A stretch of DNA of 64,000 bases, taken from assembly GCA_949358305.1 (NCBI GenBank), contig OX442316.1, positions 16,244,001-16,308,000 of the forward strand, written 5' to 3'. The stretch is from Strigamia acuminata. Lineage: Eukaryota > Arthropoda > Chilopoda > Geophilomorpha > Linotaeniidae. Each line of letters begins with the position of its first letter. The first letter of the stretch is position 1. The translations under genes were made by a program, and so were the position numbers. The notes under the pieces were generated by a model. That model made no database searches and was not told the DNA's origin. It saw nothing but the letters and a program-made list of their open reading frames with translations. This document shows positions 29,548-64,000 of this stretch, piece after piece.

Positions 29548-29662
29548 TTATTGCGAATAGCAATTCGATTTTGTATTTGGAAACAATTAGTAGTGATTTG
29601 AAAAGTTGATGTAAATGGATTTAAACTGATTGCTTTGGATTCGAGAAGAAACACGCATACGC

Positions 29663-30658: not shown

Positions 30659-30660
30659 CG

Positions 30661-30670
30661 TCCCCCTCCC
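30661..30670 (-). promoter_or_regulatory. Polypurine tract of E1
   Basis: On the minus strand GGGAGGGGGA lies two bases before the 3' LTR. It is the expected primer site for plus-strand DNA synthesis. Confidence 0.85.
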
Positions 30671-30697
30671 AGCTCTGACCGCCGGTGTTCGGAGCGA

Positions 30698-34465: not shown

Positions 34466-34945
34466 CGTGAGGATTGCGCGTTCAGTCAGACCACGATTAA
34501 AAAACTTGAAAACTTCTCGTAAAATGGATCAAAAACTTGGTTAAAAATGCACTCGCTGTGTATCACGTGCGGACGACGATCAGCTGATTTTAGCGGAAGT
34601 CCGGGTGAAAACGAGGCAATCGTGGTGGGTTCTGGGTAATTTTACTCCAGAACCAGGTGCTTATGACTGTGCGCAACAGCCCGTGCGCATGTTACGCTAC
34701 GGGGCTCCTTTGTTTCTACGCCCGTGCGCGATCGCTGCTACGGGGTCTTTTGCACGCGGTATCCGACCCGTGCCGATAATTTTGCTACGGGTCCCGCGTT
34801 TCCACGCCATCTCGTGACGCGAATTCGACCGATATCCGCTTTGTTGGACTTAGCGAAATTTTCAGAGTCTCGGATTTTGATGGCTAGCGCTGTCGATCGG
34901 TCAATTTTTTTGTTTTTCAGCGTCGCCATCGACTCGTAACGTTTT

Positions 34946-39016: not shown

Positions 39017-39021
39017 GAATG

Positions 39022-39085
39022 GCGCAGACGGTCGAGAAGTTATTTCTTCGCCGCCTGCGCTGACTCGTTTTTTGACTCGTTTTTT
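39022..39085 (-). promoter_or_regulatory. -1 ribosomal frameshift signal of E1 (two slippery heptamers and hairpin)
   Basis: In the gag frame the minus strand reads GCA AAA AAC GAG TCA AAA AAC GAG TCA. It therefore contains the canonical heptamer A AAA AAC twice (39085-39079 and 39073-39067). Six bases after the second, a hairpin (39060-39022) pairs GCGCAGGCGG with CCGTCTGCGC, including one G-T wobble. It has an inner CGAAG/CTTC-type extension, and the gag stop lies in its top. The -1 frame runs directly into pol. Confidence 0.8.
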
Positions 39086-42000
39086 GCCATGGCGAGTTTA
39101 ATCTCTGCCATCTGCTTCATTATCGCGTCAAACTTAGCGTCTTCTTTCGCTGTTCTTGGGCACTCATTGGAATAGTGACCCGGTTGGTTACACTTAAAAC
39201 AACGAATATTTGATTTGTCTCTTGGGGCTTCAATCGATTTCTTTTTTTCAGGGTCTACTTTCGACGGTGGCGTGTAATTTTTTCGAAAATACTTCGGAAT
39301 TCGGCCGGCATTTGGTTTTAACCTGGCGCGAAATTCTTCTACCGCTCTATCTCGATGGATGAGATGTACTAGCGGTCCTTCCTCATCGCAACCCGTTGAT
39401 AAGGTATCGCGATAGCTTCGTATTTCTTCGTCCGTCGAATAATCGTCTTTTTCTTCTTTTTCGTCTGATTTTCCGACATTTTGTTCGGCTTCCTCCCCCT
39501 CCTTGACCTCCTCCAGTGTCGCTTGCATGGCTGACGCTGTCGGTGCCTTTTTAGGGGCGGCCAATGGGTTGGAAGGCAGCGTGGATGTCAGTTTATTTTT
39601 TATTTGTAAACCAACGCTAGCTTCTGCCAGCTCCATTATACCGCTAAGATATTCAGTAGGGCGCATGATTTTGTCTGTCGCCCCATATCTTTCCGCACTC
39701 AACTTGAGACGTTTAGCGGTTGCTGCTTTCTCCGCTTCTGGTAAAGCGGAATAATATCTCTTCTCGATATCTATCGTGTTCTCGAACAGGAAGGCGCTCA
39801 TTTCTTCGTAGCTGCCTCCTGTCGGTGCCCTTTCTTCAAGTAGCACCCGTTGCGAGTATTCCGACAAACCGCCGAGAAAGAAAAGGTTGAATCCCGTGGC
39901 ATGAAATTCCATCGGGGCCTTTTCGAACAACAATCTGGCGCGAATGTCGTAATCCATTATGGTTTCACCAGGCATCTGGCGAAGACCTCGCATCTTTCGG
40001 CTCACCTCTTCGGGTGTCTCGCCGTAGCGCAGGTCGAATCTCATTAAAAAGTCGTCCCAATTGACGCCTTTCAATCCTTGGTACCACTCACGTGCCGAGC
40101 CTGTCATTAGCTCGACAATACCGTGGGTGAGCATGTCTCCTACGGTGGCTTTAGTGGCAGTCTTAATCCGAATTACTTCGTCAAGGAAGCGATCTCCCGC
40201 TTTCCATGACCCGTCGAAACGGTTCTGAATATAAAATTGCCACCTAATATTCCCGGTAACACTCATGGTGTCACGTCGGGAGACAGCGTATTTTTTCTTT
40301 ACGCGGTCACCAGTGTTACGATTACGATCATTTCGTTTGCTCAGATCGATTCCTTCGGCTTTTAACGAGCCAAGCAGGGCTCTTCCAAGCTCTCCCATCG
40401 TATACTGCCGACCCGTCGAATCGGTAAACGCGCTTTGTCGGGGAAGGTCCTGAAACTCCTCCCGTCGGTGGTCGCTATTTTCCGATCGACGTCGTTTCTC
40501 TCTATCGCGCGGAGAGTTGGATCTCTTCCGGCGATTACTTGACTTATCCTTTCGTCTGTCGTCGTTGGACGAGGGGTCGGAGCTGGGGTCGGGAGACGGT
40601 GAGCGGCGTGGCGGGTTGCGCCGTGAAGAGTTTGACTCTTTCCGGCCCCTACGACGGTCGTCACGTTCCCTTTCCCTGCGTTCATCGCGTTCTCTTTCCC
40701 TTCGTCTTTCTCCGGAACCTCTCTCCGAATCGTGATGACTGGGTGCATTCGACTCCAGTTCATCCGACGACGAATCACTGTTTCCGTAGTGATACTGTTG
40801 CTGTCCTCTTTCGCGTTGACGTTCCTCTCGTGACGATGTGCGGTCTTCGGAAGGTTTTCTCGAAGGTCCGTCGTCTTTGAGGATGGGTACCGGCTGTTGC
40901 CAGTCGTTACCCCGCGGGTCGTCGCGTTGTCGGCTCGTGTGAGTCTGTTCTTCGTTACGACGCGCGTTGTTCGCATTTATTAATCGGTTGATAGCGTTGT
41001 TAGTGTTATCGTCTAACGCCATCATGCGAGGTCGAACGCGTTGTTCGGTCGAGACTTCCCGTTTGCGTGGAGTGACTGGCACTTCCTTTTTTCGCTCGGG
41101 TTTGGGGCTGACCTTCGGCGTGCGCTTCGGGTCGCCTTCTACGCTCTCGTCGGACAATTCGGACGAGCTAACTTCTGGCTTGCGAACGGATTTTGGTTTG
41201 TCTCGTTGCAGCCTAGTCATGAAAGCTTGTTCAGCTTCTTGTTGAGAACGGAATGCATAACGATGTGCATGTAAGGCTCGATCAACTATTTCGACTTCTT
41301 CTGGAGTAGTCGGAACGCGCTGGGATTTGCCGTACTCGAGAGCTCGCGCTTCTCTTTCCGCCAGCTTCCGCTTTCTCTCGCGGATGGCTTGTCGGGCCTC
41401 ATTCTCGGCATCCGCTTCGAATTGAGCGGAGTCTACCATTTGTTGAGCGTATGCGCCTTCAACAACGGTGATTTCCGGGGATAACCTGTGCGCTCTTAAA
41501 GCTGCACGTACGATTTGTAATGTTTCGTACACAGTTATTTTTCCCGTTGGCAGAGTGTATCGTACACCTTCTGCCTGTGCCAACTGCATCGTGTCAACCA
41601 ATGTGGCCGAGACGCTGTAAGGCTGGCTCGGAACACGCTCAGTTTTTGACGCATTGGACTTGTGTCCTTCGGACCTGACCGAAGCTGGGCGGCTTTGCGT
41701 AATTGGCGTGTTTAGTGCCGAATTAGCTGTCGTGTTTGAGGCCGTCTTTTGTATCGGAGACGCCGCTTTCGGACTGCCCACCTCGGTGTCGTGCGTTAGA
41801 CGAGGCGATGGGTTACGGGATAAAACCTCGTTTCCGCTCGTCTCGCCGTCACGGTTAGAACGCGGCAGTTTGGAGTGAGATTGCTCTTCACCCCGCTCTG
41901 TCTCGTCCAATCGCTGCCTCGTCTCGGAACGAGACGGGTGCGATGCCTCTGATGCGCTTCTGCGATCGGGTTTAGGCTTGCGCCGTTTTTGCCTCGCTTC

Positions 42001-42120
42001 GTGCGCTGAGGCTTTGGGTAAGGGACCTCCAGATCGCAAATGATAATCGGCGCCTTTACGGCTACCGGCTCTCTTGTTTGCGTCGGAGTCGGAATCCGTT
42101 ACTCGGATATTGTCTGCCAT
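39040..42120 (-). CDS. gag: E1 Gag
   Basis: Capsid/nucleocapsid polyprotein, 1026 aa from the first true ATG (MADNIRV), which has a good context. In-frame sequence upstream of it lacks an ATG. The N-terminal 550 residues are highly charged, with long Arg/Ser/Asp/Glu runs. A retrotransposon-Gag capsid region lies around residues 640-780 (MTGSAREWYQGLKGVNWDDF, LRYGETPEEVSRKMRGLRQMPGET). A single CCHC zinc knuckle, CFKCNQPGHYSNEC, sits at about residues 974-987. The stop lies inside the frameshift hairpin. At over 1000 aa it is much longer than typical gypsy Gag (300-500 aa), mainly through the charged N-terminal extension. Confidence 0.95.
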   Translation of the reverse strand: MADNIRVTDSDSDANKRAGSRKGADYHLRSGGPLPKASAHEARQKRRKPKPDRRSASEASHPSRSETRQRLDETERGEEQSHSKLPRSNRDGETSGNEVLSRNPSPRLTHDTEVGSPKAASPIQKTASNTTANSALNTPITQSRPASVRSEGHKSNASKTERVPSQPYSVSATLVDTMQLAQAEGVRYTLPTGKITVYETLQIVRAALRAHRLSPEITVVEGAYAQQMVDSAQFEADAENEARQAIRERKRKLAEREARALEYGKSQRVPTTPEEVEIVDRALHAHRYAFRSQQEAEQAFMTRLQRDKPKSVRKPEVSSSELSDESVEGDPKRTPKVSPKPERKKEVPVTPRKREVSTEQRVRPRMMALDDNTNNAINRLINANNARRNEEQTHTSRQRDDPRGNDWQQPVPILKDDGPSRKPSEDRTSSREERQRERGQQQYHYGNSDSSSDELESNAPSHHDSERGSGERRRERERDERRERERDDRRRGRKESNSSRRNPPRRSPSPDPSSDPSSNDDRRKDKSSNRRKRSNSPRDREKRRRSENSDHRREEFQDLPRQSAFTDSTGRQYTMGELGRALLGSLKAEGIDLSKRNDRNRNTGDRVKKKYAVSRRDTMSVTGNIRWQFYIQNRFDGSWKAGDRFLDEVIRIKTATKATVGDMLTHGIVELMTGSAREWYQGLKGVNWDDFLMRFDLRYGETPEEVSRKMRGLRQMPGETIMDYDIRARLLFEKAPMEFHATGFNLFFLGGLSEYSQRVLLEERAPTGGSYEEMSAFLFENTIDIEKRYYSALPEAEKAATAKRLKLSAERYGATDKIMRPTEYLSGIMELAEASVGLQIKNKLTSTLPSNPLAAPKKAPTASAMQATLEEVKEGEEAEQNVGKSDEKEEKDDYSTDEEIRSYRDTLSTGCDEEGPLVHLIHRDRAVEEFRARLKPNAGRIPKYFRKNYTPPSKVDPEKKKSIEAPRDKSNIRCFKCNQPGHYSNECPRTAKEDAKFDAIMKQMAEIKLAMAKNESKNESAQAAKK

Positions 42121-42168
42121 TTTTGGGTATAAAAATGATCTCAAGTTCTATTCGAGTCGTTTAAATCG

Positions 42169-42186
42169 ATCCCGGACAGGCCCCCA
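42169..42186 (-). promoter_or_regulatory. Primer-binding site of E1, tRNA-Pro-like
   Basis: On the minus strand TGGGGGCCTGTCCGGGAT begins two bases after the 5' LTR. It differs at two positions from the tRNA-Pro primer-binding site known from murine gammaretroviruses. The gag ATG follows after only 48 bases, so the leader outside the LTR is very short. Confidence 0.8.
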
Positions 42187-42188
42187 CG

Positions 42189-43184
42189 TGTCGCGCTCAA
42201 CTCGGTCTGTCGCTGATACGTGGTATGAGTCACTCTCTGATCTCGCAATACCGCTTTACTCAAGCGGTTACCCAAATAATGTAACACGGCAAGACAATGT
42301 AAAAGGTAAATATAATAAATGTATTTATTATACGGGAATATACAGTTAAAAGGGAATAAAATATGTAAGGGAATAAAAAGGTAAAAGGAAAGGGGTGTGA
42401 AGTTGGCGGGAAACTGGTCGAGGTCGTCCTTTGTCGCTGTGGATCCAAGATGGCGTCCGCGTGGCAACGTGGTGTCGTCTTGGGCCGGCGTGGCAATGAA
42501 TGGCGTCCTCGTCTCACGTTTCTCGTTCGGTCCTTCGGGCTCACGCTGGTCGGGCGCGAGTGAATGCCTGAAAGGTCTTACTTCTGGTCTGTTGTCTAGG
42601 TTTAGGGTTTTTTGTAGGTGTCCGGCGATCACACAGCGGCGGACGCTTGGTGGTTCCCGGCGATACACACAGCGGCGGGAACGCTCGTCGTGGTTACTGC
42701 AATTTAGGCTTGTGCGACCGTTTGTCTGCACAACTCGCTAAATTGGAGTAGGTTTACTATTTCTAGCTGGCTTGCTAAAATAGTGTGGTAATCTTGTTTC
42801 GCAGGTTACTCTGCGGAGGTTAACACAAATCAATCGTACTCACGTTGAAAGTCCCTTGTCCTAGGTCACTCCTGAAGTCTTTGTACTTAGGCTTGATCGT
42901 TTTAGGACGTTTGGCTTTTACGTGTATCTTGGTTGATTTTTGTGTTGGTTCTCTCCGCTCAGTGCAAGGCGAATTCCTTTGCACAAAGCGGGGGGTGACA
43001 GGTGACTAAAGCCACCCAATAGTGGAGAAGACGAATCTCCCCCACTCCCCCAGGGCAGACGCCCGTCCATTGACTGGATGTCAATGCTCTGAGGGAAGGG
43101 AGGCGCGCGTGCGACTCCCCTTCTTTACCCGTATGTAGGCCACGAGAGAAACTCTTCGTGCCCCACCCCAGTCGGGTCACCACA
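42189..43184 (-). repeat. 5' LTR of E1
   Basis: 996 bp, same length and ends as the LTR at 29663-30658, and apparently identical over the stretches compared, including all small open frames. It should hold the element's promoter. The paired hairpins occur at 42620-42644 and 42653-42682. Confidence 0.97.
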
Positions 43185-49078: not shown

Positions 49079-50559
49079 TATACTGTGCCCCTCTAAATCT
49101 TTTTTTTTTAGAAAAATTTTTATTTCCGAAAACCAAATAATCAATTTCCAATCTTGTTCACAGTCCACTGCAAACCATTCAAAGTCAGCCGGTTGCAACA
49201 TTATCATTTGCATATGCAAACTACCAAAAGCAAAAGAAAAAAGATTGGTTTTCTGCATCAAAGTCCATGCAGTGTTTGGTCTTGACCTCTTTAATCCAAG
49301 AAAAAAAGAAAACTCAAGACTCTTGCTTCAGATCACATTGTGCAGTAGCATGCAAAGATGTAATACACACACTCAGAAAATACAATTTCATGGGCTGTAC
49401 CTCATTTTCCTAACATTGGATGCAATGTCATGAAAATGATGTTTCTAAATGAAGAGGCAAAAAATCTCATCAACTCCATTGTGAACAAGCTGTACCAAAT
49501 TCCATTCATTTTTGTACCAAGTAGCCTTTTTAGCACACAGAAGGAAAAATGAGAAAAAGAAGAAAAAGAAAAAAAGATGGAGGATAAAAAAAAAAAAAAA
49601 AAACTAGATTAAAAACTCAGTGAAACCACATCATGTTTCAGAATGAATTGGATCATCTCTTTCAATACTTCAGAGATATATGGAATAAAAATAAAAAGGG
49701 ATGGTGGGCTTGTATTTGATTGGCAGGTTGAATATAAAGTTGTCATTTCAATATTAAACTTTTCTTGTAGGAAATGTGTTAGTTTACTTTAAGCACCATC
49801 AATTTTTCAATCTCATTTTTCTTTTTCTTCCCAAGGGGAAAAACATATTGAAAATATATGTGGTGAGAGGTTGAATGTGGAGAGCAATGAGTTCTTATTC
49901 CACATTGTGTAAAGATGAAGAGTAATGGATTAAATGTTTCATTCCTTCCTCACTTGACAAATAATTGAGATTTCAATTTTAAAAATGGAAATGGTTTGTT
50001 TTTAAATAATGGTCAATGTCATAACAATCATTTTTTTAATTTATCACTTCAGTAAATCAAATTATTGACAAATGCATAAAAAAAATTATTTCATTATTCA
50101 TTGTTTAATTTCAATGCATTTTAATGAGAATTAATAGTCAAATCATTAATTTAAAGAAAAAAAATTTCACCTCGCATGATTTGACATATTTTTCCATTTC
50201 AATGTTATCTTAAAATGTCAATGATGGAAATTGATGACAACATCAAAATTACTTGAGTAGGTTCCTATTGTTTCATATTGTTTGCAAAATGGCAGCAATA
50301 ATAAAATGTTTAATCAAATATCAAATCTGCACTTTGCGGTATTTTGATGCCAAATTCATACTGCGCATTCCATTCTGCACACACGATTTCTAATTTCAGT
50401 TTTCACTTAGTGGAACTAAGCCTAATGCTAAAATATGTGGTGACCTCAAATATTCCTATTTGAGTGCGCACCATATTTCCAAATCGTCTTATAAACATAT
50501 TCAACAAGCTTATATGTTTTGTTTCAATGTAAATTGAAATAAAACATACATTAATAAAA

Positions 50560-50566
50560 TATAAAA
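50560..50566 (+). promoter_or_regulatory. Candidate TATA box of the E2 LTR
   Basis: TATAAAA about 125 bases into the LTR. A start about 30 bases downstream would fall within the hairpin at 50571-50598 and would put the hairpin array in the transcribed leader. Confidence 0.5.
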
Positions 50567-50973
50567 CAAGACACAATATTACCCAAATAATATTGTGTTT
50601 TGCAGCAAGTTTTGGCCCAGCAACAGCGTCAACCAATCACGCTGCAGCGTGCATTGCTTTGATGATGCTGCTAGGCGTGTGCCTGGGCGGAGCATCCCTT
50701 CCCCTCGCGCGTGCCCGGCTCAATTGTTGCACACGACCCGAAGGCGGCCGTGTGTGATCTTTGTGCAACTCGTCATCTGCGCAGCTTTTCTGAGCAGATT
50801 TAGAAGTGAGCCAAACGGTTTTGGCCCACTCTTCCCGCACTCTTGATTCCACCTCCAAACTGTTCACAACCGTGTCAAACTTCTGCCAAAACTGCAAAGT
50901 GTGATCTGTGATTCTTGGACGAATTGAGTTTCATCGCTGGTCTGTACCCACTGTACGGAATAGCAACTTTCTA

Positions 50974-51300
50974 GCTTGAATTACTACACGTAATTTAAGC
51001 CATTTCTGTGTGTGAATTGACATTGAGCTTGCTCTGTCAATTTGTAGTTCTTTGTGTCGAGCTTGCTCCACAAAGAAATCCGTGTGAAACTAACATCGAG
51101 TTTACTCTGTTAGTTTGAAGGCTTTGTGTTGAGTTTAACTCCACAAAGCGAATTGTGTTAAGACGGATTGTTACGTCGAGCTTGCTCCGTAATAATCAAA
51201 CCGCTGTGTGCAAGACGTATTCTCGTGTTGAGCTTGCTCCGCGAGGATTTTTAGTATATTTTAGCAAAGTATTTTAGCGTCGAGTTTACTCCGCTAAAAT
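50974..51300 (+). promoter_or_regulatory. Array of seven covarying bulged hairpins (plus one plain hairpin) in the E2 LTR
   Basis: Hairpins at 51015-51042, 51048-51077, 51087-51116, 51121-51149, 51166-51197, 51219-51248 and 51271-51300. Each reads: arm of 8-10 nt, then TC or TT, then GAGC or GAGT, TT, then matching GCTC or ACTC, then the complementary arm. Arms differ completely (AATTGACA, TTCTTTGTG, AAACTAACA, GCTTTGTG, GATTGTTACG, ATTCTCGTG, ATTTTAGCG), yet each pairs with its own partner, using G-T wobbles in the fifth and sixth. H4 has one extra loop base. As RNA, the GAGC form makes a G(CUUG)C tetraloop with a 2-nt pyrimidine bulge four pairs below. A plain 11-bp hairpin (50974-51000) precedes the array. 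Confidence 0.9.
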
Positions 51301-51350
51301 CCCGCGCTCACACGACGCCATCGACGCCATCTTGGAGCCAACGGTCAACT

Positions 51351-51356
51351 GTGAGT
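51351..51356 (+). promoter_or_regulatory. Candidate leader splice donor of E2
   Basis: GTGAGT after ACT in the LTR, downstream of the hairpin array. It could supply a leader exon for a spliced ORF3 message. This is inferred from the motif only. Confidence 0.25.
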
Positions 51357-51576
51357 GTACATTTGAAGAAGAAGCCAGATCGACCCCAAACATTTTAAAT
51401 AATACCTCCTTTGTATTTTGAACGATTAAAACTATCTAATTTTTCCTTTACTCTGTGTAAAATCATTCCCCTAGACAAACATTTGGCCACAGAGTAGAAG
51501 TCCTGTACGGCATCTCTACGACGATTGCTTATTGAATTTACATAATTTAATAAGTAAAAACCCGGATCGCCGCACT

Positions 51577-51594
51577 TGGGGGCCCGGCCGGGAT
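51577..51594 (+). promoter_or_regulatory. Primer-binding site of E2, tRNA-Pro-like
   Basis: TGGGGGCCCGGCCGGGAT starts two bases after the LTR. It differs from the known tRNA-Pro site at two positions and from the E1 site at two. Confidence 0.8.
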
Positions 51595-51666
51595 AGTTTT
51601 GATTGTTAAAATCCGATTTTTGCGAAAAAATCCTTTATTTCCATTGTTCTTTTTCAATTTGACAAA

Positions 51667-54561
51667 ATGGCGACGCCAATGCAAATTGTAAAACGACAGC
51701 GAGGTCGACCAAGCACTCAGAAACGAGCAGCGACGGTTTTGCCGGCTCTCGAGCCTGAAATGCTTATGGAGAAAATTATTTCTGAAGAAATAACACCAGT
51801 TCCAGATCCGAAACAACTCAAGGATGCTGAAAATGAAGTTGCTAGAGCATTAAGCGCTTCAAGTGCGAGTTCTAACGACCAAGAACTCCCGCCACTTCCA
51901 CTGGAGGAAGTGGAAAATACGTTACGTGAAATGGAAAGTGAATCGTCTCACGAATCACCTCCTCGCATGACCATGCTGGATGCTTTGAGAAATCAAGCAC
52001 GCCAGGATGGCGCCCAAATAACGGACGACATGACGGTGGAAGAGATTCATCGCGCCATGATACGACTTCACACTGACCGAGCCGTTTCAAATTTACAATT
52101 TGAAATGGAACGAAAAGAAGCTGAGCTTCAACAACAAAAAGCGGAGGTTGAGCTCCAACACATGGAACTCAATCGACAAAATGAGGAATTTCTAGCCCAA
52201 AAAGCTAGAGAATACAGGTTAAAAGGTGAAGTGGAAGATCTTTCTAAAATGAATACTAGAAATGAACTTTCAATTCGCTCACACCAAGAGGCGCGAAGAC
52301 AGCTCGAGCTTACCAAAAGTAAGCTGGAGCAGAAAAATAAAGAACTGATTGATTTGGCAGACCACTACCAACGCAATCATAATCAACTAGTGAGATATGC
52401 TGCTGAATTAGACACACGTGCTAAAACACAGCGTACTCGCGAAAGCAAAATAGCTAAGCGTGAAGACGAGATTTTCCACTCACTGGATCAACCCAGTACG
52501 AGCGGACAAGTCAAGTCTAGCGGCTCTGCTAAGCGATTACAACCAGGAGAATCGCAAAATCAAATAAATGAGAATGAAATTCTCCGAGCTGATTTGTTGC
52601 GCGCTCAAGAAGAGCTTGCAGAAATGAAAGATCGTTTGCAAGCAAGAAATTATACTGACCAATTGGTGCAACCAGAAATGGCTGCGCCAACTGTTCCTAT
52701 TTTGACTCCCGAAACAATAACAATTTCTGTTGTTTCAGAGTTAAGTAGCCAATCTGGATTATCGAGTGATGACGACCAACGTTCGCGTCGCCGCCATCGC
52801 TCAAAAAGAAAACGTCCTTCAGATTCCGAGGAAAGGAGAGCTGATCGCAATCCACTTCCTGGTAATCAAAATCCTATTTTTCACAACAGTGACCGACTGT
52901 TGGGGATGGTAGACGATCGAAATAGACGGCATGAAACTGGTATTCATGTTACTCGAACGATACCATTGGCTCAACAGCAAGACTCGTCAAAAAGAAGTCG
53001 ACGAGACACGAATCCAGCACGCGAACCACCCGACGGACATGAAAGCCCGCCAGGTGGGGGTCAGTATAGAAGAAATCCACCAGATGGAGGAAATCCAGAT
53101 GGACATGGAGATGGACCACCTGGAGGTGGACGTCGACCGCCAGACGACGACGGCGACCCACCCGACCCACCTGAAACACCACATTTTAACACGCCTTCAA
53201 ATTCACAATCTGATTCAAGGTCGGATTCTGATGTGAATGCGCAACAAGAACGCGATAATCGACATCGATCTCATCGACGTCGACATCGAGGCCACTCTTC
53301 TCGGCGTAATACGCATTATTACACTGCTGAAGAAATTGATCGATTATTAGCTGATCGTCGATCTTCCGATCGATCTGACGCTACTGCCGATAATGCTGAC
53401 ATCGCATTACGACAGAAAATTGCACAATATACTGCAATCAACTGGACTCACGATTTAGTTGATGAAAGGACTATTAGATGGGATCACATCAAACCCGCTT
53501 TATTCGATGGAGAATGGGAAGCTGGATCCACTCTTTTAGATGAAGTTTTACGAATTTCAAGGTTGAATGGCATTGCATGTCACACTGCTTTGAAAAGAGT
53601 AGTACCTAAAGCTCTTATAGACCGAGCTGAGAAATGGTTTTATTCTAAACAATTTCAAAATTGGAACCACTTTGTAGAAGAATTCATGACTGAGTATGGA
53701 GAGTCAAGTGAAGACTTATTACAAATGTGGGATAATCTTTCTCAAAATAAAGGCGAAAGTCTTCGCTCTTATTTAAGAAGGACTGAGGATTTATTGGTCA
53801 CTCTCCCTTATACGATGGGAGACGCAGCCATTGATCGTCAATTCCGTCGTGGATTGACAGATTACTCAAAAAATGTTCTACTTTCTGTACGAGCACCTTA
53901 TCCGGGTGGTTTCGCTGAATTAGCCAAATTTATGCGAGCCAATCAGATAAGGATTGACGAAAATTATAAAGCTTATCTACCAGCTGATGAAAAAGTTGCG
54001 TACGCTAAGCGACAGCAACGGAGAAAGGAGTTGGCAAAAGACACACGTTTTGCTAACACCCCTCTTTTGCAACCCCAAAAACGAGGAGATTTTTTGGCAG
54101 AAACTGCTAAAGAATCAAAAAAGGGATCGGATGGAAAAAATCCTCATCCAACCCCTAAAGCTCACTTAGCCGAAGTGACTGAAATGGAGGCTGCTTCTGA
54201 ACCAGAGAAATCTGACTCGGAACCAGAAAGCGAGGCTGCAGCTGCTTTATTAGCCCGTAATAACGCAGTAGCTCGAAAATTTGGACCAAAGATGGCGCCT
54301 AAAAACGTTACTTTTGGTTCACCAAAGACAGACGCGCTCAGTAGATCGAAGTCGCCGACCCCTAAGAAGGACGAAGCCAAACGTTCAAGTTCGCCTTCGC
54401 CAAAAGTCGCGAAATCGCCTGCTACTGACCCGTGTAATATTTGTAAAAAATTGGGACATTGGGCTAAAGAATGTCCTGACAGAAAATCGAGCAAAGACAA
54501 GATTATAGAAGAGTTCGAGAAATCGATGAAATCAATCGGCGAGCTTCTAAAAAACTTGTAA
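51667..54561 (+). CDS. gag: E2 Gag
   Basis: 964 aa from ATG in a good context (AAAATGG). The region of residues 130-260 is a predicted coiled coil (long Glu/Gln/Lys runs such as EAELQQQKAEVELQHMEL). Residues 380-560 are basic, Pro/Gly/Asp/His-rich and disordered. The capsid homology region lies at about residues 600-760 (LIDRAEKWFYSKQFQNWNHF, MTEYGESSEDLLQMWDNLSQ). The CCHC knuckle CNICKKLGHWAKEC is at 923-936. It ends ELLKNL just after the slippery site. Like E1 Gag it has a long N-terminal extension, but of coiled-coil rather than Arg/Ser type. Confidence 0.95.
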   Translation: MATPMQIVKRQRGRPSTQKRAATVLPALEPEMLMEKIISEEITPVPDPKQLKDAENEVARALSASSASSNDQELPPLPLEEVENTLREMESESSHESPPRMTMLDALRNQARQDGAQITDDMTVEEIHRAMIRLHTDRAVSNLQFEMERKEAELQQQKAEVELQHMELNRQNEEFLAQKAREYRLKGEVEDLSKMNTRNELSIRSHQEARRQLELTKSKLEQKNKELIDLADHYQRNHNQLVRYAAELDTRAKTQRTRESKIAKREDEIFHSLDQPSTSGQVKSSGSAKRLQPGESQNQINENEILRADLLRAQEELAEMKDRLQARNYTDQLVQPEMAAPTVPILTPETITISVVSELSSQSGLSSDDDQRSRRRHRSKRKRPSDSEERRADRNPLPGNQNPIFHNSDRLLGMVDDRNRRHETGIHVTRTIPLAQQQDSSKRSRRDTNPAREPPDGHESPPGGGQYRRNPPDGGNPDGHGDGPPGGGRRPPDDDGDPPDPPETPHFNTPSNSQSDSRSDSDVNAQQERDNRHRSHRRRHRGHSSRRNTHYYTAEEIDRLLADRRSSDRSDATADNADIALRQKIAQYTAINWTHDLVDERTIRWDHIKPALFDGEWEAGSTLLDEVLRISRLNGIACHTALKRVVPKALIDRAEKWFYSKQFQNWNHFVEEFMTEYGESSEDLLQMWDNLSQNKGESLRSYLRRTEDLLVTLPYTMGDAAIDRQFRRGLTDYSKNVLLSVRAPYPGGFAELAKFMRANQIRIDENYKAYLPADEKVAYAKRQQRRKELAKDTRFANTPLLQPQKRGDFLAETAKESKKGSDGKNPHPTPKAHLAEVTEMEAASEPEKSDSEPESEAAAALLARNNAVARKFGPKMAPKNVTFGSPKTDALSRSKSPTPKKDEAKRSSSPSPKVAKSPATDPCNICKKLGHWAKECPDRKSSKDKIIEEFEKSMKSIGELLKNL

Positions 54562-54600
54562 GCGCGCATCCAGACGGTCTAGTGGATGCGACGCCTACCG
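54549..54600 (+). promoter_or_regulatory. -1 ribosomal frameshift signal of E2
   Basis: In the gag frame CTA AAA AAC contains A AAA AAC (54549-54555). Nine bases later CGCATCCA (54565-54572) pairs perfectly with TGGATGCG (54583-54590) across a 10-base loop. CGGT in that loop could pair with ACCG at 54597-54600 to make a pseudoknot. The -1 frame passes the gag stop and continues into pol (LVSAHPDGLVDATPTASEN). Pol has no ATG near its beginning, so it depends on this shift. Confidence 0.85.
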
Positions 54601-57600
54601 CCTCGGAAAATGAACTAACACCATCTCAGATTTTAGATGAATTTTTAAATACACAGATTAAATTAGAATTAGAAAATAATTTAATATTTCCAAAAATTGA
54701 TGTTTCCAGTTTAAGGCTTGTGCTGCAAAATGAAAACATCACTGAAGAATTTTTTAAAGAAAAAGTTCAACAAATAAAAGTTGATTGGGAATCTAAAATA
54801 AAAGATGCTGTTACTTTACTTGATGAAAAAACTAGGCCAACACCAGAAATCATTGAAAGGTCAGATAAAATTGATTTACCTGGTCTTGATGAATGCATTG
54901 AAAAATTAATGGCTACAACGCTAGTCACTAATGATTTATTGGACGAATTACCATTGGATCCGCCAATAGAAATTAAGCCACCGCGACGTTTTAAATGCAA
55001 GTACGCGGACATACCAAACAGCAATGATTTGCCGACGATTCGATTGCAGACGGCAAACGGTATGATAACAGGGATGTTAGACTCTGGAGCTAATCGAAGC
55101 TTCATGGCCTACTCCGTAGTAATTTCGCTGAAACTGGAAGATGAAATTCGACCAATAGGACCGGATGTGAGAGTTACAACTGCTTCAGAAGATGTAGTCC
55201 CTGAAGGAACTCTCCTACTTTCTTTTGCGTGGACTCACGGGATGTTAAGTCATCCATTCATAATTTTAAGAAATAAATATCCTATTGTTTTATTAGGATG
55301 TGATTTCATGAATCGACTCAACATACAACCAAATCCTAAGACCATGTCTTGGAATTTTGTCAAGTCTTTGAAAGAAGATTTACCTTTTGTTCCTCAAGCG
55401 ATTCTTGATCGTTATCAAGAGTTCCTTGATCCACCCGAAGAAATAATGAGACGCGACTTTATTAAAGCAAATCACATGAAAGCTGGTTCCGCCACTGCAT
55501 GTCAAGCTAAAGTTGCCAATGAAGAAAATGTAGTACAAAGACTTGTTAGCGACGCTAATTTGTCAATGGAAAATAATTTAATGCTTGAAAGAGTATTAAA
55601 GAAACATGAAAAGATTTTATCACGCCGACCAGGTAGAACACACCTCGTTAGGCATGAAATTAAACTGGACACTAAAGTTCCAATTAGAGTTCCGTTTAAA
55701 AGCGTAAATCCACAGAAACGTGAAATTATCCGTCAAATCTGTCAAGATATGTTGGATAATGGGTACGTTGAACAAGCCACTGGAGACTATGGAATGCGAA
55801 TAGTTCTAGTGATGCGTCCGGATTGTGATCCGAGACTCTGCATTGATTTTAGACCACTCAATGCACATACATTATACGATCCTCCTCAAATGCCGAGCAT
55901 TGAGGAAATCTTGCGAGAACTCGGAAGGTTTGAATGGGTCACAACAATAGATTTGTCAAAAGGCTATTGGCAGATAGAGGTTCATCCGAACGACCGTGCT
56001 AAAACTGCGTTTTGGAGCCCTTTGGGTCGACTACAATTTCGAGTCATGCCCTTTGGCCTCGTAAATGCGCCGTCAACTTTTCAAAAGTTGATAGAAAAAA
56101 TTTTGGGGGATGCCTATCGAAAATTTGCATGGGCATACCTCGATGATATGATCATTATATCTAAAAATTTTGAAGAACACATGATTCATCTGGAAGAAAT
56201 TCTGAGTAAACTTGAAAATGCAAATCTTCATGTTCATCCAGAAAAATCGAAATTTGGCAGAAAAGAATTAACTTTTCTTGGTTACAAGTTAAGTGTTCAA
56301 GGAGTTAGTGTCGACCCTAAAAAAGTCGCCGCCATTAAAGAAATGCCAGCTCCTTCAAATTTGAAAGAGTTGCAAAGATTTTTGGGAATGGTGAACTTTT
56401 TTCACCGATTACTTAAAAATCTGGCAGTAATGACAGAACCTCTACGTCCTTTACTCAAAAAGGATGTGGAATTTATTTGGTCAGAAATTCATCAAGAAGC
56501 TTTTGATCAAATAAAAGATGCTTTAACAAATGCAGAAACAATGGCCATGCCTGATTTGACAGAACCATTTATTGTGCATACCGACGCCAGCAGAAAAGGA
56601 CTAGGCGCCGCGCTTATGCAAATGAGAGAAATCGATGATCAAAATATCGAAGTGCCTTGTGTTTATGCCAGCAGAAGTTTGCAACCTGCTGAGATAAATT
56701 ACAGCGCCACAGAATTGGAGTGCCTAGCGGTAATCTGGGCATTACGTAAATTTCGACATTATTTGGAATTTACAACATTCATAGTAAGGACTGACCATCA
56801 AGCATTAAAATGGTTGATGCAGTTGGACGAACCTGCTGGAAGGTTAGCACGTTGGCAAATGGAGCTAATGCGCTACTCTTTCGAAATACAATATATTAAA
56901 GGTCCACTAAATGTTTTAGCGGATGCTTTATCCAGATCACCGATTGACAAACCGGAAAATCCTGAAGATGATGGAGATAATGACGAATTATTATCTTACT
57001 GTCCATCACCACAACGAAATTGGAAAATGGGAAAATTCCATGAGCTTCCTGTCTCCACATTAGAGGAAAAGGAAGATCATGAATTCGTCAACTATTGGAC
57101 TAAAATCTATGACCCCTCTGAGGAATCAGATGACGTCATAAGAGCGCAAATTTCGAGGAAATTCCAAGTTCCTTCGTCAAATGTTTTAATAAAAGCATTT
57201 GTCGCCAAAATTGTAGAACGTCTTGATTGTGAACCTCCCACAAGGGAAGACATAATCAAGGCCCAAAAAGAAGATAAAGTTTGCCAATTGATGCGTAATT
57301 TTTTAAATTGTAATCAATTTCCGCCTGACGTCACAACGCGACTCCAGAGGAAACAATATAGAAAACACGCAACCACCTTCTTAATTGAAGATGACTTATT
57401 AATGCAATTTCATCCCACAATGTCTGATGAATTGGGGGAGGATGGGAGAGCACTCAAAGTTTTTGTACCTCAGACATTGAAGTATAAAATTATTTGGCTA
57501 ATGCATGGCCACCCACTTTCTGGCCACCCAGGAATTGCAAGGACTCTTTATCGAGCACGCCGAATTTATACCTGGAAAGGCATGAAATCGGACATTACGA

Positions 57601-59030
57601 GATTCATTCGACATTGCGAGCGTTGTCAAGCTTGCAAGCCTCGAACGAAGGGACAAATTGAAGCAGCGCAAATGGGTCCTTACAGCCCATTTGACTGCCT
57701 AAGTGTTGATTTGACCGGCCCGAAACCTCGGACGCGCAAAAACAACACACATATTTTAGTCATACTTGACGTGGCAACTCATTGGCCAGAATTATATCCA
57801 ATGTGTAACCCCACTGCTGGAAAAGTAGCAAATTGCATTTATCACCTTTCCATGAGCATGGGATTCCCTCGTAAAATTATTTCTGACAACGGCCCGCAAT
57901 TTCGTGCCCAAGTCTTTAAAAAATTTTGTGAAAAGTTCAAGATGGTTCCAACACCAACTTCAACGTATCACCCACAAGCTAACCCGGTTGAAAGGGTTAA
58001 CCGTGACATCAAATATTTGGTTGCAATTTATTCATCTATTCATTCCAAATGGGACGAATATTTGCGTGAATTTGCATTTAGCTTGAGAACTACGGTGACG
58101 AGAGGAAGAGACTTCTCTCCCGCATTTCTTAACTTTTTTCGCGAACTCAGAGTACCTTGGGATCCAAGAATACCTGAAGGAATTTTGGTCGTAGATCCAA
58201 AAAACCCACATTTATACGTGCAAAAATTAGAAGCCGTTATCGCCGAAACATATCAGCACATGATGTCACACGTGTTAGATTTGCGTAGACGAGTAAATCT
58301 TAAAAAAGAAGGTGAGAAGTTCTCCAATTTTAAATTAAACGATTTAGTTTGGAGAGATTCTCATGTTTTGTCGAGCGCTGCCCGCGGCATTGCAGCTGGC
58401 ATCGCTGATAAAAGAACAGGACCTTATGTAATAACCAAAGTATTACAGGGAGGATCCGTAGAATTGAGAAAGCTAGAAAATAACGAAATATTTCCAGCTG
58501 TCCATTCGTCGGAATTAACTCCGTATTTCCCGAGTTTCGATCAGGAAGTATGGCTCGAAGGCGAAGAAGTCGGTCAAAAGACTGAAAATATAATTAATAC
58601 GTTAGATGACGATGAATTAAAGAAAATACCTGTCGATAATTCATCCAAACCACAAATGGAGTCAGACCTCGTGAATAACGACGTTGAGCTTCGTGACAGT
58701 TTCAAAAAACTTGAAATTGCTAAAAAATTAAATAAAAAGGTGTTTTTAGAAAAGAAACAAAAAACATCTGAAATAAAAGACTCATCTGACTCAGTCTCCG
58801 ATGACAATGAAGACGGCGATTTAAATACAATAAATCCCTCGCCGACAAAGAGATATAATCTTCGGACTCGTAAACCGAGAGGAAAAAACAACATGTGTCT
58901 TCTCCCCTCGATAACCTCGAGATCCAGGGATCAGCCGTATGACGTAAGGAGCAATTCCTCAAGCCATACTCAAACCAATCAAACAGTAAGATTGGATGAC
59001 GTCACTAACAGCGACGTTACCCAAACGTAA
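54556..59030 (+). CDS. pol: E2 Pol polyprotein
   Basis: Translated as a Gag-Pol fusion by -1 frameshift; I start the feature just after the slippery site because no early in-frame ATG exists. Numbered from position 54582: protease DSG at 167, reverse transcriptase LCIDFRPLN and YLDD (Asp 521), RNase H HTDAS and YSATELECLAVIWA, integrase zinc finger HGHPLSGHPG...CERCQACK, catalytic D1043, D1102 and E1137 (spacings 59 and 35), and GPYVI module. The C-terminal tail is long, acidic/lysine-rich and ends after an RRG-like basic stretch. All catalytic residues are intact. It is strongly similar to E1 Pol throughout. Confidence 0.96.
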
Positions 59031-60857: not shown

Positions 60858-62002
60858 TCTCACGATCGGGCCAACAGGTTATTGACGAGTTCGTGAGGTT
60901 TTTCGGGCGAAAACGAACGTTGGAAGTTCGTCGCAGATCGTCGCCGAGACGTATCGCCGAAAACCGGAATTTTTCGCGAAGGACAGCCGTGACGACGTGT
61001 GCGGACAATTCTACAGTGAATTTGGAGCAAAACGGTGTAAGGAACATTGCATTTCGTTTATTTTTCGCCGATATAACCGAGTTTTTCTCGGGCGGCGCCA
61101 TTTTTGTTTGCGAAGTTAGCGTGTCTACGAGTGTGTACGGAACGACACACGCACGCCCAACGTTTCGACGAACGAATACGTCGATTAGCCGCCGCATTTG
61201 GTGTCTTTCCAGCGTGGGAACGTCTGGAAACCGTCATTTTGCGAAGAAATCGTCGCGAATCGACGATTGTTGCACCGGCAGCCATTTTCGTTGGATTTTT
61301 CGTCAAGAACGACGAGATTCAACTCGCGAATTTAATCCGGCGATCACCGAGAAGTCCTGCACACGATAAGCGTGTGTGCAGGCGGTTATTTCCGTGCTTC
61401 GCATCCAGGAAAGCGGGTACGAAGGCGTGGACGTACGCAACATCGATTTTGGCCGATACACGGAAGTGTGTACGCGGTCTGCACGTCAGCCCAGTTCCGT
61501 GCGAAGACAACGTGAAGCCGACGTTTACTGCAACGTGGGAACCAATTACGACGCAAGGATCCCGTAATTGGCCAACTTCACATCTGAAAAGTGTATTTTA
61601 GTTGCTATTTTCGTGAAACTCTGTTAATTCTTAAGGTTTTTGTTTTGGGGTCCTTTTGTTTATTCTGCACCCTTTAGGCAGTCGCCTACGTGCAGTCTCA
61701 TTCCGGTCTGGGCTTGTCCGTGGCCAACTAGTCGTCCCGCGGCCCCCAGGTGGGTCGGTCGGAAGCTAGTAGGGCGACCAGATTCGGGTTTTTCACCTCA
61801 CTTATTGAGGTGCCCAAAGGGAAGTTTGTGATTGTTTCGCCTTCAATTTTTGGGGGTGTTTTCGCTTCTCTGCACGGCATATTCACCGGAATTGTGAATA
61901 TTAGTGTGTGTTTTCATCAAATTGGTGAATTTTTCGAGTGTTTTTCGCCGAAATTTGTGAATTTTGTGATTTGTGCATCGATTTTTCACCAAATTCTTCA
62001 CC
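60858..62002 (+). other. Long leader of E3
   Basis: About 1.15 kb between PBS and gag start, GC-rich, with several open frames up to about 200 codons that have no recognisable domain. It contains a stable hairpin around 61353-61384 (CCTGCACACG/CGTGTGTGCAGG). It is unusually long for copia and its role is not evident. Confidence 0.6.
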
Positions 62003-64000
62003 ATGTCGAATTGGGACCGACATGATGATTACAAGGATGTACGCAAACTGGACGGCTCCAATTATCCCACCTGGAGCATGCAGATCCAGCTTTTGCTTCA
62101 ATCATACAGTGTTTGGGGACATGTGACCGGCAAAATCAAGGAACCGCCTGCTGGATCGCCGGCAAAGGAAATTCGTGACTACGAAAAGGGCGAAGAAAAA
62201 GCCCGCTCCACCATTTGTCTGGCTTGCAACGAACCACAGCAAGTCGTGGCTGTGGCCCACCCAACCGCGAAGGGTGTGTGGGAAGCGCTGAAAGCGGCTT
62301 ACCAGCCGACCACGCGCGCACGCAAAGCCCGACTCCGGCGGGAATTCCTCGATATGCGTCTACGGGAGGATGAAGAGATGGTCGTCTTTACTTCCCGTGT
62401 CGACCGGAAAGTTACACAACTCGCCGACGTGAAGATTGTGGTCTCGGATGAGTTCCACGCTTTCCAGTACTTGGACCTTTTGCCGCCCCAATTCGAGCCA
62501 GTCAAACAGACAGTGTATCACTGGCCCGACCCGGAATTTACGGCCGCTGCCGTGAAAGAAAGACTTTTAGGCGAGTATAATCGCCTTTACGAGAAGGGGG
62601 ACGAATTTGGAGTGCCCAACCCGACACCGTTGGAAAACACTGGAGCCTTCTTTGGCGGAGGCAGTGGTCAACGTGGACGCGGCGGAACCGCGCCCAGTTC
62701 CCCACGTGTGTGTTTTACCTGCGGTGGGACAGGCCATTTTTCCCGCGACTGCCCTTCTCCACCTAAACAGCAACTTACTGGAAGAGGCGGATCAACAGGA
62801 CAGTTTAGGGGCAATCCACGAGGAAAATCACGTGGAAAAGGCCGGCAAAAGGCCGCCGTCACCCAAATGAATATTTTTGATGACGTCCCCATCTCTTACT
62901 TCTCCGCAGCGATTTCGAATCAAGAGCAACCTCCTGTCGTATCGCTGGTGTCACATGCGAACTTTGATTCGCAATGGTACGTCGATACAGGAGCGACAGA
63001 CCATTTCTCGTTCAACAAGTCCTGGTTCTCCGACTTCAAACCATTAACTGGTTACAGCGTCCAGCAGGGCGAAGGAAAGTCGAAAATCGAGGGCATCGGG
63101 ACTGTGACATTAATATCTTTTTATGGACAAAAGAAACGGGAATTACAATTGAAAAATGTCTTCTACGCTCCAAACTTCAGAAAGAATCTGATTTCATTAG
63201 GTCGTGCAGATGAAGCTGGGGCTACCACATTTGTAAAGAATGGAAAAATGTCCATTTTTCATGACAGTATTGATGCGCCTTCTATCACTGCGACACGTAC
63301 GAGTGATAGAATGTATAAAGTCAATTGTCAAGTGAATACTGCACACATTGTTAACGCTGCTGCATTACCTGCGCAACAGAATGCGGCAGTGGAGCCTAGT
63401 CCACCTTTAAAGGGTGAAGAAATTGTTAATTCATTACTAACTCATTTAGATTTTAAGACTGCATTAACCCAAAATTTGAGTAAGACAGGGAAACCTGCAA
63501 TTGCGAATATGGGGCAAGTGACTGCTGCGAACAATGCGCCAGCGATCGTTGCGAATAATGCGAGTCCGAAACAGAAATTGAACGTTTTGAATAACACACA
63601 CACTGGCCTGGTAGTCAACAATGGGAATAAATCAAAGACTGCGAAGATTTCCAAACAAGGTGTGCAAAACAGTTTGAAAGATAATGGTGGGAATAAGGCT
63701 CTTATTAAGCCTGACAAACCTCAAACGATGGATGTTTGGCATTCACGTTTTGGGCACCTTAATGCGAAAGGGATTGCATTGTTGGAGAAATCCGATGAAG
63801 TATTTGGGCTGAAACTTTCCAACAATGAATTGTCGGCTTGCGATGCTTGTTCGAGGGCGAAAAGCACACGTGCAAGCTTTCCTCCCATTATTAATATCTC
63901 CACTAAAGGGATTTTGGAAATTGTTCACTTAGATGTTTGGGGGCCCTCACCGGTTAAGAGCATTGGTGGGGCATTTTATTACCTAATTATGGTTGATGAT
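62003..64000 (+). CDS. gag-pol: E3 copia Gag-Pol polyprotein (partial)
   Basis: One frame of 666 codons, open to the window edge, from ATG in the context CACCATGTC. Gag capsid at the start (KLDGSNYPTWSMQIQLLLQS, UBN2-like). CCHC knuckle CFTCGGTGHFSRDC at residues 237-250. Aspartic protease DTGAT at 328-332. After a variable Asn/Ala-rich linker comes the pre-integrase zinc finger with H580, H585, C613 and C616. Integrase begins with the first catalytic Asp (LDVWGP, residue 644). The remaining integrase, reverse transcriptase and RNase H lie beyond the window. No stop or frameshift is present, so it may be a live copy. Confidence 0.95.
   Translation, partial: MSNWDRHDDYKDVRKLDGSNYPTWSMQIQLLLQSYSVWGHVTGKIKEPPAGSPAKEIRDYEKGEEKARSTICLACNEPQQVVAVAHPTAKGVWEALKAAYQPTTRARKARLRREFLDMRLREDEEMVVFTSRVDRKVTQLADVKIVVSDEFHAFQYLDLLPPQFEPVKQTVYHWPDPEFTAAAVKERLLGEYNRLYEKGDEFGVPNPTPLENTGAFFGGGSGQRGRGGTAPSSPRVCFTCGGTGHFSRDCPSPPKQQLTGRGGSTGQFRGNPRGKSRGKGRQKAAVTQMNIFDDVPISYFSAAISNQEQPPVVSLVSHANFDSQWYVDTGATDHFSFNKSWFSDFKPLTGYSVQQGEGKSKIEGIGTVTLISFYGQKKRELQLKNVFYAPNFRKNLISLGRADEAGATTFVKNGKMSIFHDSIDAPSITATRTSDRMYKVNCQVNTAHIVNAAALPAQQNAAVEPSPPLKGEEIVNSLLTHLDFKTALTQNLSKTGKPAIANMGQVTAANNAPAIVANNASPKQKLNVLNNTHTGLVVNNGNKSKTAKISKQGVQNSLKDNGGNKALIKPDKPQTMDVWHSRFGHLNAKGIALLEKSDEVFGLKLSNNELSACDACSRAKSTRASFPPIINISTKGILEIVHLDVWGPSPVKSIGGAFYYLIMVDD

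What the first reader, a model, noticed from the sequence alone, without database searches (positions are those of the whole stretch)
51015..51300. Seven tandem covarying bulged hairpins in the E2 gypsy LTR
Seven hairpins in 286 bases have the same architecture: arm, 5'-side TC/TT bulge, GAGC/GAGT, TT, GCTC/ACTC, complementary arm. The arms share no sequence but every one pairs with its partner, and wobbles appear in the fifth and sixth. The cap covaries too (C-G to T-A in three hairpins). This is what selection on RNA folding looks like, and simple duplication cannot explain it. As RNA, the cap is a G(CUUG)C tetraloop above a dinucleotide pyrimidine bulge. A pyrimidine bulge below a GAGC/GCUC stem is also the plan of lentiviral TAR; I regard that as analogy, not homology. 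Such an array could bind a protein many times, for example for packaging, transcription or translation. ORF3 or Gag are candidate ligands.
Basis: partly seen in the sequence, partly recalled or inferred. Interest (0 to 1): 0.92.

Follow-up and report, generated by a model that had tools for sequence, protein, structure and literature searches.

The report
Covarying RNA hairpin array in retrotransposon

Summary
Seven bulged hairpins lie at window 51011-51300 inside a 1139-bp gypsy LTR (50436-51574). In 46 distinct homologous arrays, 99.1% of the pair cells of HP3-HP7 are standard pairs (38-48% with partners slid) and eight pairs change on both sides. Non-Watson-Crick states found in two or more arrays are 14 G.U against 1 A.C; one-off states are 6 against 9 (Fisher p 0.005). 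That points to selection on the sense RNA, not on DNA palindromes. Two details of the finding change: the seven-hairpin array is a five-hairpin array plus a second allele of its first pair (HP1-HP2 match HP3-HP4 of L092 and L095 over 74 of 75 bases), and the arms are not free (fifth pair below the bulge U-A in 223 of 230 cells). The same cap recurs in diverged repeats. The most constant parts (bulge U, then G-C and A-U) are those of the arginine-sandwich motif of HIV TAR and 7SK. I propose a multi-copy docking site for an arginine-rich protein, Gag first, on the genomic RNA. The fold is well supported; ligand and function are inferred.

The parts
50436..51574 (+). 5' LTR of gypsy element E2 (1139 bp, TG...CA)
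   Evidence: bounded by its identity (1139 of 1139) to an LTR 36.5 kb downstream on the same strand, taken to be its 3' LTR
51011..51046 (+). HP1: arms of 12, TT bulge, GAGCTTGCTC
   Evidence: 74 of the 75 bases of the HP1-HP2 unit align without a mismatch to the HP3-HP4 unit of L092 and L095
51048..51077 (+). HP2: arms of 9, TC bulge, GAGCTTGCTC
51087..51116 (+). HP3: arms of 9, TC bulge, GAGTTTACTC; four pairs with a change on both sides among 46 arrays (one of them in a single array)
51121..51149 (+). HP4: arms of 8, TT bulge, GAGTTTAACTC (3-base loop); two pairs with a change on both sides
51166..51197 (+). HP5: arms of 10, TC bulge, GAGCTTGCTC; no both-side change, varies mainly through G.U
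51219..51248 (+). HP6: arms of 9, TT bulge, GAGCTTGCTC (GU loop in 27 of 46 arrays); no both-side change, three pairs drift between U-A and U.G
51271..51300 (+). HP7: arms of 9, TC bulge, GAGTTTACTC; two pairs with a change on both sides in three combinations
51425..51430 (+). ATTAAA, possible polyadenylation signal downstream of the array (inference)
   Evidence: sequence; role recalled, not tested
50633..50690 (+). CCAAT (50633-50637) and GGGCGG (50685-50690), possible promoter boxes upstream of the array (inference)
   Evidence: sequence; not tested
51610..54561 (+). Gag frame (983 aa) with Retrotrans_gag, CCHC knuckle and an arginine-rich stretch at residues 391-402 of the frame
54480..59030 (+). 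Pol frame (1516 aa): weak protease match, RT, RNase H, integrase

Best explanation
It is a cis-acting RNA element of the E2 gypsy family: five (or, after recombination, seven) tandem copies of one hairpin module, read in the sense RNA. The module is a covarying stem, a two-base 5' bulge that starts with U, and a short cap (G-C, A-U, G-C, Y-R closing a loop of 2-3 bases). Most of the stem only has to pair; the bulge and cap are the recognised part. I think the bulge U folds onto the A-U pair above it, as in the arginine-sandwich motif of HIV TAR and host 7SK, so that each hairpin holds an arginine-rich segment of a protein; five to seven copies give high-avidity binding. The likeliest ligand is the element's own Gag, for selecting or exporting the unspliced genomic RNA. 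Supported by data here: the fold, its sense-strand selection, the constant bulge and cap, and recurrence of the cap in other repeat families. Inferred: protein recognition in several copies (about 0.7), arginine-sandwich geometry (about 0.35), Gag as ligand (about 0.25).
For: Covariation on 46 rows: 99.1% of 2952 cells paired against 38-48% slid; 111 both-side cells against 36.1 shuffled; score 0.139 against 0.093. Sense RNA: G.U 14 against A.C 1 in two or more rows, 6 against 9 one-off. Bulge in 230 cells: TC 147, TT 81, TA 1, gap 1 (summed). The A-U pair second above the bulge is kept in 228 of 230 cells and the G-C next to the bulge in 221 of 230 (summed). The motif TNNYRTYGAGYTTRCTCYRNNA occurs 912 times in the genome, 0 in the reversed control. 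In 21 hairpin forms from diverged loci UY-GA stays while the third cap base is G, C or A (found with a model that favours these letters). TAR contacts (U23 with A27-U38, G26, G28, base before the bulge) are from passages of PMC6189040. The Gag frame has RSRRRHRSKRKR at residue 391.
Against: No binding or transcription data. GAG/CUC with a pyrimidine bulge could suit other proteins. TAR's hexaloop is absent. Arginine-rich stretches are also in Gag of sister element E1, which has no match to this hairpin in its LTRs. The start of transcription is unknown. Copies share ancestry and recombine, so independent events are few: HP5 and HP6 have no both-side change, 15 of 500 shuffles also reach eight both-side pairs, and further pair types (28) are fewer than in the shuffles (30.4). 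Unpaired columns with a change in two or more rows lean weakly the way that would give G.U (17 against 10). In the diverged family F2 many stems have a C.A mismatch (12 of 21 forms printed).
Confidence: 0.6

Rival explanations
1. A nuclear export or translation element read by the third ORF or by a host factor, as Rev/RRE in lentiviruses (recalled) or CERV in the gypsy element Cer1.
For: Cer1, a Ty3/gypsy element, needs its extra protein CERV for export of unspliced genomic RNA (PMC10309623, abstract and passages). E1 and possibly E2 have a further frame downstream of pol.
Against: The main text of PMC10309623 holds 'response element' 0 times and 'hairpin' once, in a protein fold name. E1 has the longer ORF3 (1093 aa) but no match to this hairpin. 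The third frame of E2 was not followed as one open frame in this copy.
Confidence: 0.2
2. A localisation (zip-code) element: the host's Egl-BicD-dynein adaptor or a similar transport protein binds several stem-loops and carries the element RNA, for example into the oocyte, as for the I factor.
For: PMC13186709 (passages): Egl favours U-A pairs at two sites 8 bp apart, prefers pyrimidine-purine, tolerates 5'-strand bulges, and recognises two stem-loop elements in one transcript. Here the fifth pair below the bulge is U-A in 223 of 230 cells and the pair 8 bp above it is the Y-R closing pair (21 of 21); the array offers 5-7 stem-loops.
Against: The paper says the required kink comes from 3'-strand bulges; here the bulges are on the 5' strand. 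The upper site would abut a 2-3 base loop. The cap would not need to be so constant.
Confidence: 0.12
3. Mutation, not selection: hairpins were made and kept perfect by template switching or quasi-palindrome correction during reverse transcription or replication.
For: Such correction makes exactly matched arm changes (general knowledge); the array does gain and lose units beside TGTGTG repeats.
Against: Correction should erase wobbles and the bulge; instead 14 G.U states are shared by two or more arrays, the 2-base bulge is present in 229 of 230 cells, and A.C states are hardly shared although one-off A.C states are as common as G.U.
Confidence: 0.06
4. A DNA element: dyad-symmetric binding sites for a transcription factor or insulator protein, like the Su(Hw) array of Drosophila gypsy (recalled).
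For: It lies in an LTR between promoter-like boxes and a polyadenylation-like signal (inference); gypsy insulators are also arrays (recalled).
Against: A dyad site has no reason to prefer G.T over A.C on one strand, nor to let the arms vary while keeping them complementary.
Confidence: 0.05

Closest known systems
Arginine-sandwich hairpins: HIV-1 TAR and 7SK stem-loop 1 (PMC6189040, passages)
   Same: Pyrimidine bulge of two or three bases with U as the triple-forming base; purine before the bulge; G, A-U, G above it. In TAR the upper stem is GAGC/GCUC (recalled).
   Different: Here 5-7 tandem copies, a 2-3 base loop instead of the hexaloop, a gypsy retrotransposon instead of a lentivirus, no Tat-like protein identified, and a third cap pair that varies in diverged forms.
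Egl-BicD localisation signals, including the I-factor ILS (PMC13186709, passages)
   Same: Bulged stem-loops in retrotransposon or maternal RNA; U-A pair at a fixed place; more than one stem-loop per transcript.
   Different: Those signals need 3'-strand bulges; here bulges are on the 5' strand and the cap is nearly constant.
Retroviral packaging signals with several stem-loops (recalled; review PMC7599994 seen in a search listing only)
   Same: Cis-acting hairpins in the untranslated part of genomic RNA that Gag reads.
   Different: Those stem-loops differ from one another (recalled); here one module is repeated with covarying stems.
Cer1/CERV genomic RNA export in a gypsy element (PMC10309623, abstract and passages)
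   Same: Ty3/gypsy element with an extra protein needed for handling unspliced RNA.
   Different: No hairpin response element is named in its main text by the words searched.

Membership tests
Lentiviral TAR | bulge starting with U below G-C and A-U pairs | tested here: met
   bulge U first in 229 of 230 cells; A-U 228 and G-C 221 of 230
Lentiviral TAR | apical hexaloop that binds cyclin T1 (recalled) | tested here: not met
   loops of 2-3 bases: UU, GU, UUA and rarer forms
Lentiviral TAR | lentivirus with Tat | tested here: not met
   Ty3/gypsy-type gag and pol domains; no Tat among Pfam hits of the three frames scanned
Lentiviral TAR | at the very 5' end of the transcript | not testable with these tools
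   start of transcription unknown
Arginine-sandwich motif | bulge pyrimidine forming a triple with a stem pair; base before the bulge as floor | not testable with these tools
   secondary-structure requirements are met; the 3D triple needs NMR or a crystal
Arginine-sandwich motif | arginine-rich ligand | tested here: inconclusive
   Gag frame has RSRRRHRSKRKR and other stretches; binding untested
Egl-BicD localisation signal | kink from 3'-strand bulges | tested here: not met
   bulges are on the 5' strand
Egl-BicD localisation signal | U-A (or Y-R) pairs at two sites 8 bp apart | tested here: inconclusive
   U-A fifth below the bulge in 223 of 230 cells; Y-R closing pair 8 bp higher in 21 of 21 hairpins
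Any Rfam family | match to one of 4227 models | tested here: not met
   no match at E up to 1 in 50400-51700
Ty3/gypsy retrotransposon (host element) | LTRs, gag with CCHC, pol with RT, RNase H, then integrase | tested here: met
   (protease match only 17.2 bits, below the 28.2 cut-off)

The most novel reading that the evidence does not exclude
A gypsy lineage outside the vertebrate retroviruses has independently evolved a multi-copy TAR/7SK-like system: 5-7 arginine-sandwich hairpins per RNA, swapped and duplicated between subfamilies like cassettes, read by an arginine-rich element protein or by the host's HEXIM/P-TEFb machinery to control its genomic RNA.
Probability: 0.3. Interest if true: 0.87.

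Novelty: new variant of a known kind. Interest (0 to 1): 0.72.

Why it matters
Few RNA signals of LTR retrotransposons have evolutionary support for a fold (general knowledge, not a search result). Here many copies in one genome act as a natural mutagenesis that separates what must only pair from what must keep its letters. That makes a ligand search direct (a hairpin of about 28 bases with defined mutants), offers a natural repeat array of the kind used as RNA tags, and tests whether TAR-like recognition has arisen outside lentiviruses.

Tried and rejected
Rfam: no match. Literature: in open-licence PMC papers, the listings (8-15 titles each, of 5 to 392 papers holding the terms) showed no paper that by title and abstract start describes such an array; most subscription papers are not held, so absence in print is not shown. 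DNA-palindrome and mutational explanations: disfavoured by the G.U/A.C test. E1's LTRs as holders of the same hairpin: no hit at E up to 10; two other inverted repeats were seen there by eye, but the minimum-energy fold of a 401-base piece does not form them. Isolated hits of the bare 12-mer core: of the 100 or so places listed, 19 chosen isolated ones were fetched with a hit; 15 have arms of 0-2 bp and look like chance, 3 (L125-L127) are one further repeat family (4 bp with a wobble, a C.A mismatch, then more pairs), 1 (L136) has 10-bp arms. Naming the host by its COX1 gene: the request did not complete. The reverse-transcriptase search listed 120 of 1492 proteins at 33-48% identity, from arthropods, fish, algae and metagenomes, so the species is not identified.

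Full report
WHAT IS THERE. The window belongs to a 237.5-Mb genome in 157 contigs, held without a name. Element E2 is a Ty3/gypsy-type retrotransposon: 5' LTR 50436-51574, Gag frame 51610-54561 with Retrotrans_gag and CCHC, Pol frame 54480-59030 with RT, RNase H and integrase. An LTR identical over all 1139 bases lies 36.5 kb downstream on the same strand; I take it as the 3' LTR, which would make this a young insertion. Seven hairpins lie at 51011-51300, positions 576-865 of the LTR. Each has arms of 8-12 pairs, a 2-base pyrimidine bulge on the 5' side, and a cap GAGC-TT-GCTC or GAGT-TT-ACTC (HP4: GAGT-TTA-ACTC). The fold of 51000-51320 is -99.3 kcal/mol against a mean of -77.4 for 100 shuffles.

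HOMOLOGOUS ARRAYS. A DNA search with 50900-51400 gave 54 matches from 40 scored candidates of 274; searches with diverged copies gave others. One search looked at loci L001-L100. Three (L041, L045, L046) lacked the anchors and were dropped; the rest gave 98 arrays, 46 of them distinct. Many of the 98 repeat one another (places fetched twice, or the two LTRs of one insertion), so they are not 98 independent copies. Read from the alignments, nine of the 46 distinct arrays carry seven hairpins and 37 carry five (one of these, L084, has lost part of HP6). Of the 75-base HP1-HP2 unit of the window, 74 bases align without a mismatch to the HP3-HP4 unit of L092 and L095, which have five hairpins. The simplest reading is that the seven-hairpin form is a five-hairpin array that gained a second allele of its first two hairpins, joined at TGTGTG.

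COVARIATION. On the 46-row alignment of HP3-HP7 (A1) with the hairpins' 65 pairs, 99.1% of 2952 cells form a standard pair; with partners slid by 1-3 columns it is 38-48%. Eight pairs have a change on both sides (HP3 four, HP4 two, HP7 two, HP5 and HP6 none; one of the HP3 pairs rests on a single array). Cells with such a change are 111 against a shuffled mean of 36.1; the covariation score is 0.139 against 0.093, with 0 of 500 shuffles reaching it. Against this: further pair types (28) are below the shuffled mean (30.4), and 15 of 500 shuffles also reach eight both-side pairs; shuffles ignore relatedness. HP3 has three changed pairs that mostly travel together (CG/AT/TA in 23 rows, TA/GC/CG in 20; one row is CG/GC/CG and two carry a non-Watson-Crick state); HP7 shows three combinations (AT/GC 26, GC/AT 14, GC/GC 6), so at least two events; the three variable pairs of HP6 examined show four haplotypes made only of U-A and U.G.

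RNA, AND WHICH STRAND. If the hairpins mattered as DNA, or if arms merely decayed, G.T and A.C mismatches should be about equally common. Counting each non-standard state once per pair, states seen in two or more rows (mostly passed on by transposition) are 14 G.U, 1 A.C, 1 other. States seen once (mostly decay after insertion) are 6 G.U, 9 A.C, 10 other. Fisher's exact test on G.U against A.C gives p 0.005; pairs are treated as independent, which they are not fully. Unpaired columns show no such bias in one-off changes (7 against 9) and a weak one in shared changes (17 against 10, same call). Over all cells the counts are 2773 Watson-Crick, 153 G.U, 11 A.C, 15 other, 38 with a gap. So the sense RNA is most likely what selection saw.

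WHAT IS CONSTANT. The bulge is TC in 147, TT in 81, TA in 1 and missing in 1 of 230 cells (summed). The A-U pair second above the bulge is kept in 228 of 230 cells, the G-C next to the bulge in 221 of 230 (summed). The fifth pair below the bulge is U-A in 223 and U.G in 7 of 230 cells. Across 21 hairpins of different arms (A2: 14 from E2 arrays, 7 from diverged loci) that pair is U-A in 19, and the pair next to the bulge is purine-pyrimidine in 21. These 21 were picked from a script that asked for the cap and for at least six of eight arm pairs, so the pairing percentage of A2 is biased; the 46-row alignment was made by anchors, not by pairing. Loops vary: in HP6 27 of 46 arrays have GU, 18 UU.

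HOW WIDESPREAD. The bare cap TYGAGYTTRCTC occurs 1156 times in the genome against 494 for the reversed pattern. With the fifth-pair T...A and the neighbouring Y-R and R-Y letters added (TNNYRTYGAGYTTRCTCYRNNA) it occurs 912 times against 0. The pattern does not ask its N positions to pair; the places listed (about 100, all on contig C1) show 17 distinct strings, and 15 of these pair at all five positions; the two that do not are the two of L041. L041 belongs to another repeat family (F2, not shown here to be an LTR) with two such hairpins 78 bases apart and other arms. Aligned to the E2 LTR, its two best-scoring matches are 16 of 16 bases at two caps (E 0.03 each); other matches are weaker. 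Twenty DNA relatives of L041 were fetched; a loose core scan found the hairpin in 5 of 20. The covariance model, trained on some of these hairpins, found weaker forms in more. Of 21 forms printed from diverged loci, 20 have UY-GA directly after the 8-base stem and one (L102) after four extra bases; the third cap base is G, C or A. Results against strict pairing in F2: 12 of the 21 forms have C.A at the fourth pair below the bulge, while L112 and L111 have C-G there; L116 and L119 replace the fifth-pair U-A by C-G. L125-L127 are a third family and L136 a further context with 10-bp arms.

MECHANISM. In HIV TAR and 7SK an arginine is held between a bulge pyrimidine, which forms a triple with a stem pair, and the base before the bulge; in TAR U23 contacts A27-U38, and Tat arginines contact G26 and G28 (PMC6189040, passages). 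The most constant parts here are the same: U first in the bulge, purine before it, G then A-U then G above it. In diverged forms the third pair, the G28 equivalent, may change, but U, G and A stay. The Gag frame of E2 has RSRRRHRSKRKR at residues 391-402 and RRRHRGHSSRRN at 556. I therefore propose a repeated docking site for an arginine-rich protein on the genomic RNA. Host HEXIM, which binds 7SK through such motifs in that paper, is the alternative ligand. Whether the array lies in U3, R or U5 is not known; CCAAT and GGGCGG upstream and ATTAAA downstream suggest R (inference).

RIVALS. The Egl-BicD rule (two U-A or pyrimidine-purine pairs 8 bp apart, two stem-loops per transcript) is partly met, but its 3'-strand bulges are absent (PMC13186709, passages). 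Export by an extra protein has a precedent in Cer1 (PMC10309623). DNA dyads and mutational palindrome repair do not predict the G.U excess or the preserved bulge.

VERDICT. The array is a real and, on this evidence, selected RNA structure; the number seven is the product of duplication or recombination; the cap recurs in at least two other repeat families of the same genome; the ligand and the step of the life cycle remain to be shown.

Noticed in passing
window 42620-42682 and 30094-30156 (minus strand), LTRs of E1: The sister gypsy element E1 (Pol 49% identical over 1310 columns) has two short inverted repeats in each LTR, arms GTTCCCG/CGGGAAC and GTCCG/CGGAC around a shared CCGCTGTGTG(T)ATCGC (read by eye, places); the minimum-energy fold of a 401-base piece does not form them. 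CCGCTGTGTG also occurs between HP5 and HP6 of E2.
   Followed up: partly
window 29659-43184: E1 looks recently amplified: all 40 scored matches of a 201-base LTR piece are 100% identical (of 696 candidates). Its third ORF of 1093 aa (30698-33979) has no Pfam match.
   Followed up: no
window 61970-64000: A copia-type Gag/Pol frame (Retrotran_gag_2, gag_pre-integrs) lies downstream of E2 pol. The two identical E2 LTRs are 36.5 kb apart, against 11.7-11.8 kb for most neighbouring LTR pairs, so an insertion into E2 is likely.
   Followed up: partly
window 50436-51000: The E2 LTR folds into further hairpins upstream of the array, among them 50974-51000 (TACAC loop) and long A+T-rich stems near its start (z down to -5.3); their covariation was not tested.
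   Followed up: partly
window 51326-51335 and the E1 LTR: GCCATCTTGG (YY1/Pho-like, recalled) lies downstream of the hairpins in E2 and occurs in the E1 LTR too.
   Followed up: no
L101-L120 (F2-related loci) and genome places: A variant cap GACTTGTC after the same UY occurs 93 times against 50 in the reversed control, some in pairs 78 or about 161 bases apart.
   Followed up: partly
window 18141-18911, 21980-22537, 27329-27554, 525-851: Tandem-like repeats seen in the window self-comparison.
   Followed up: no
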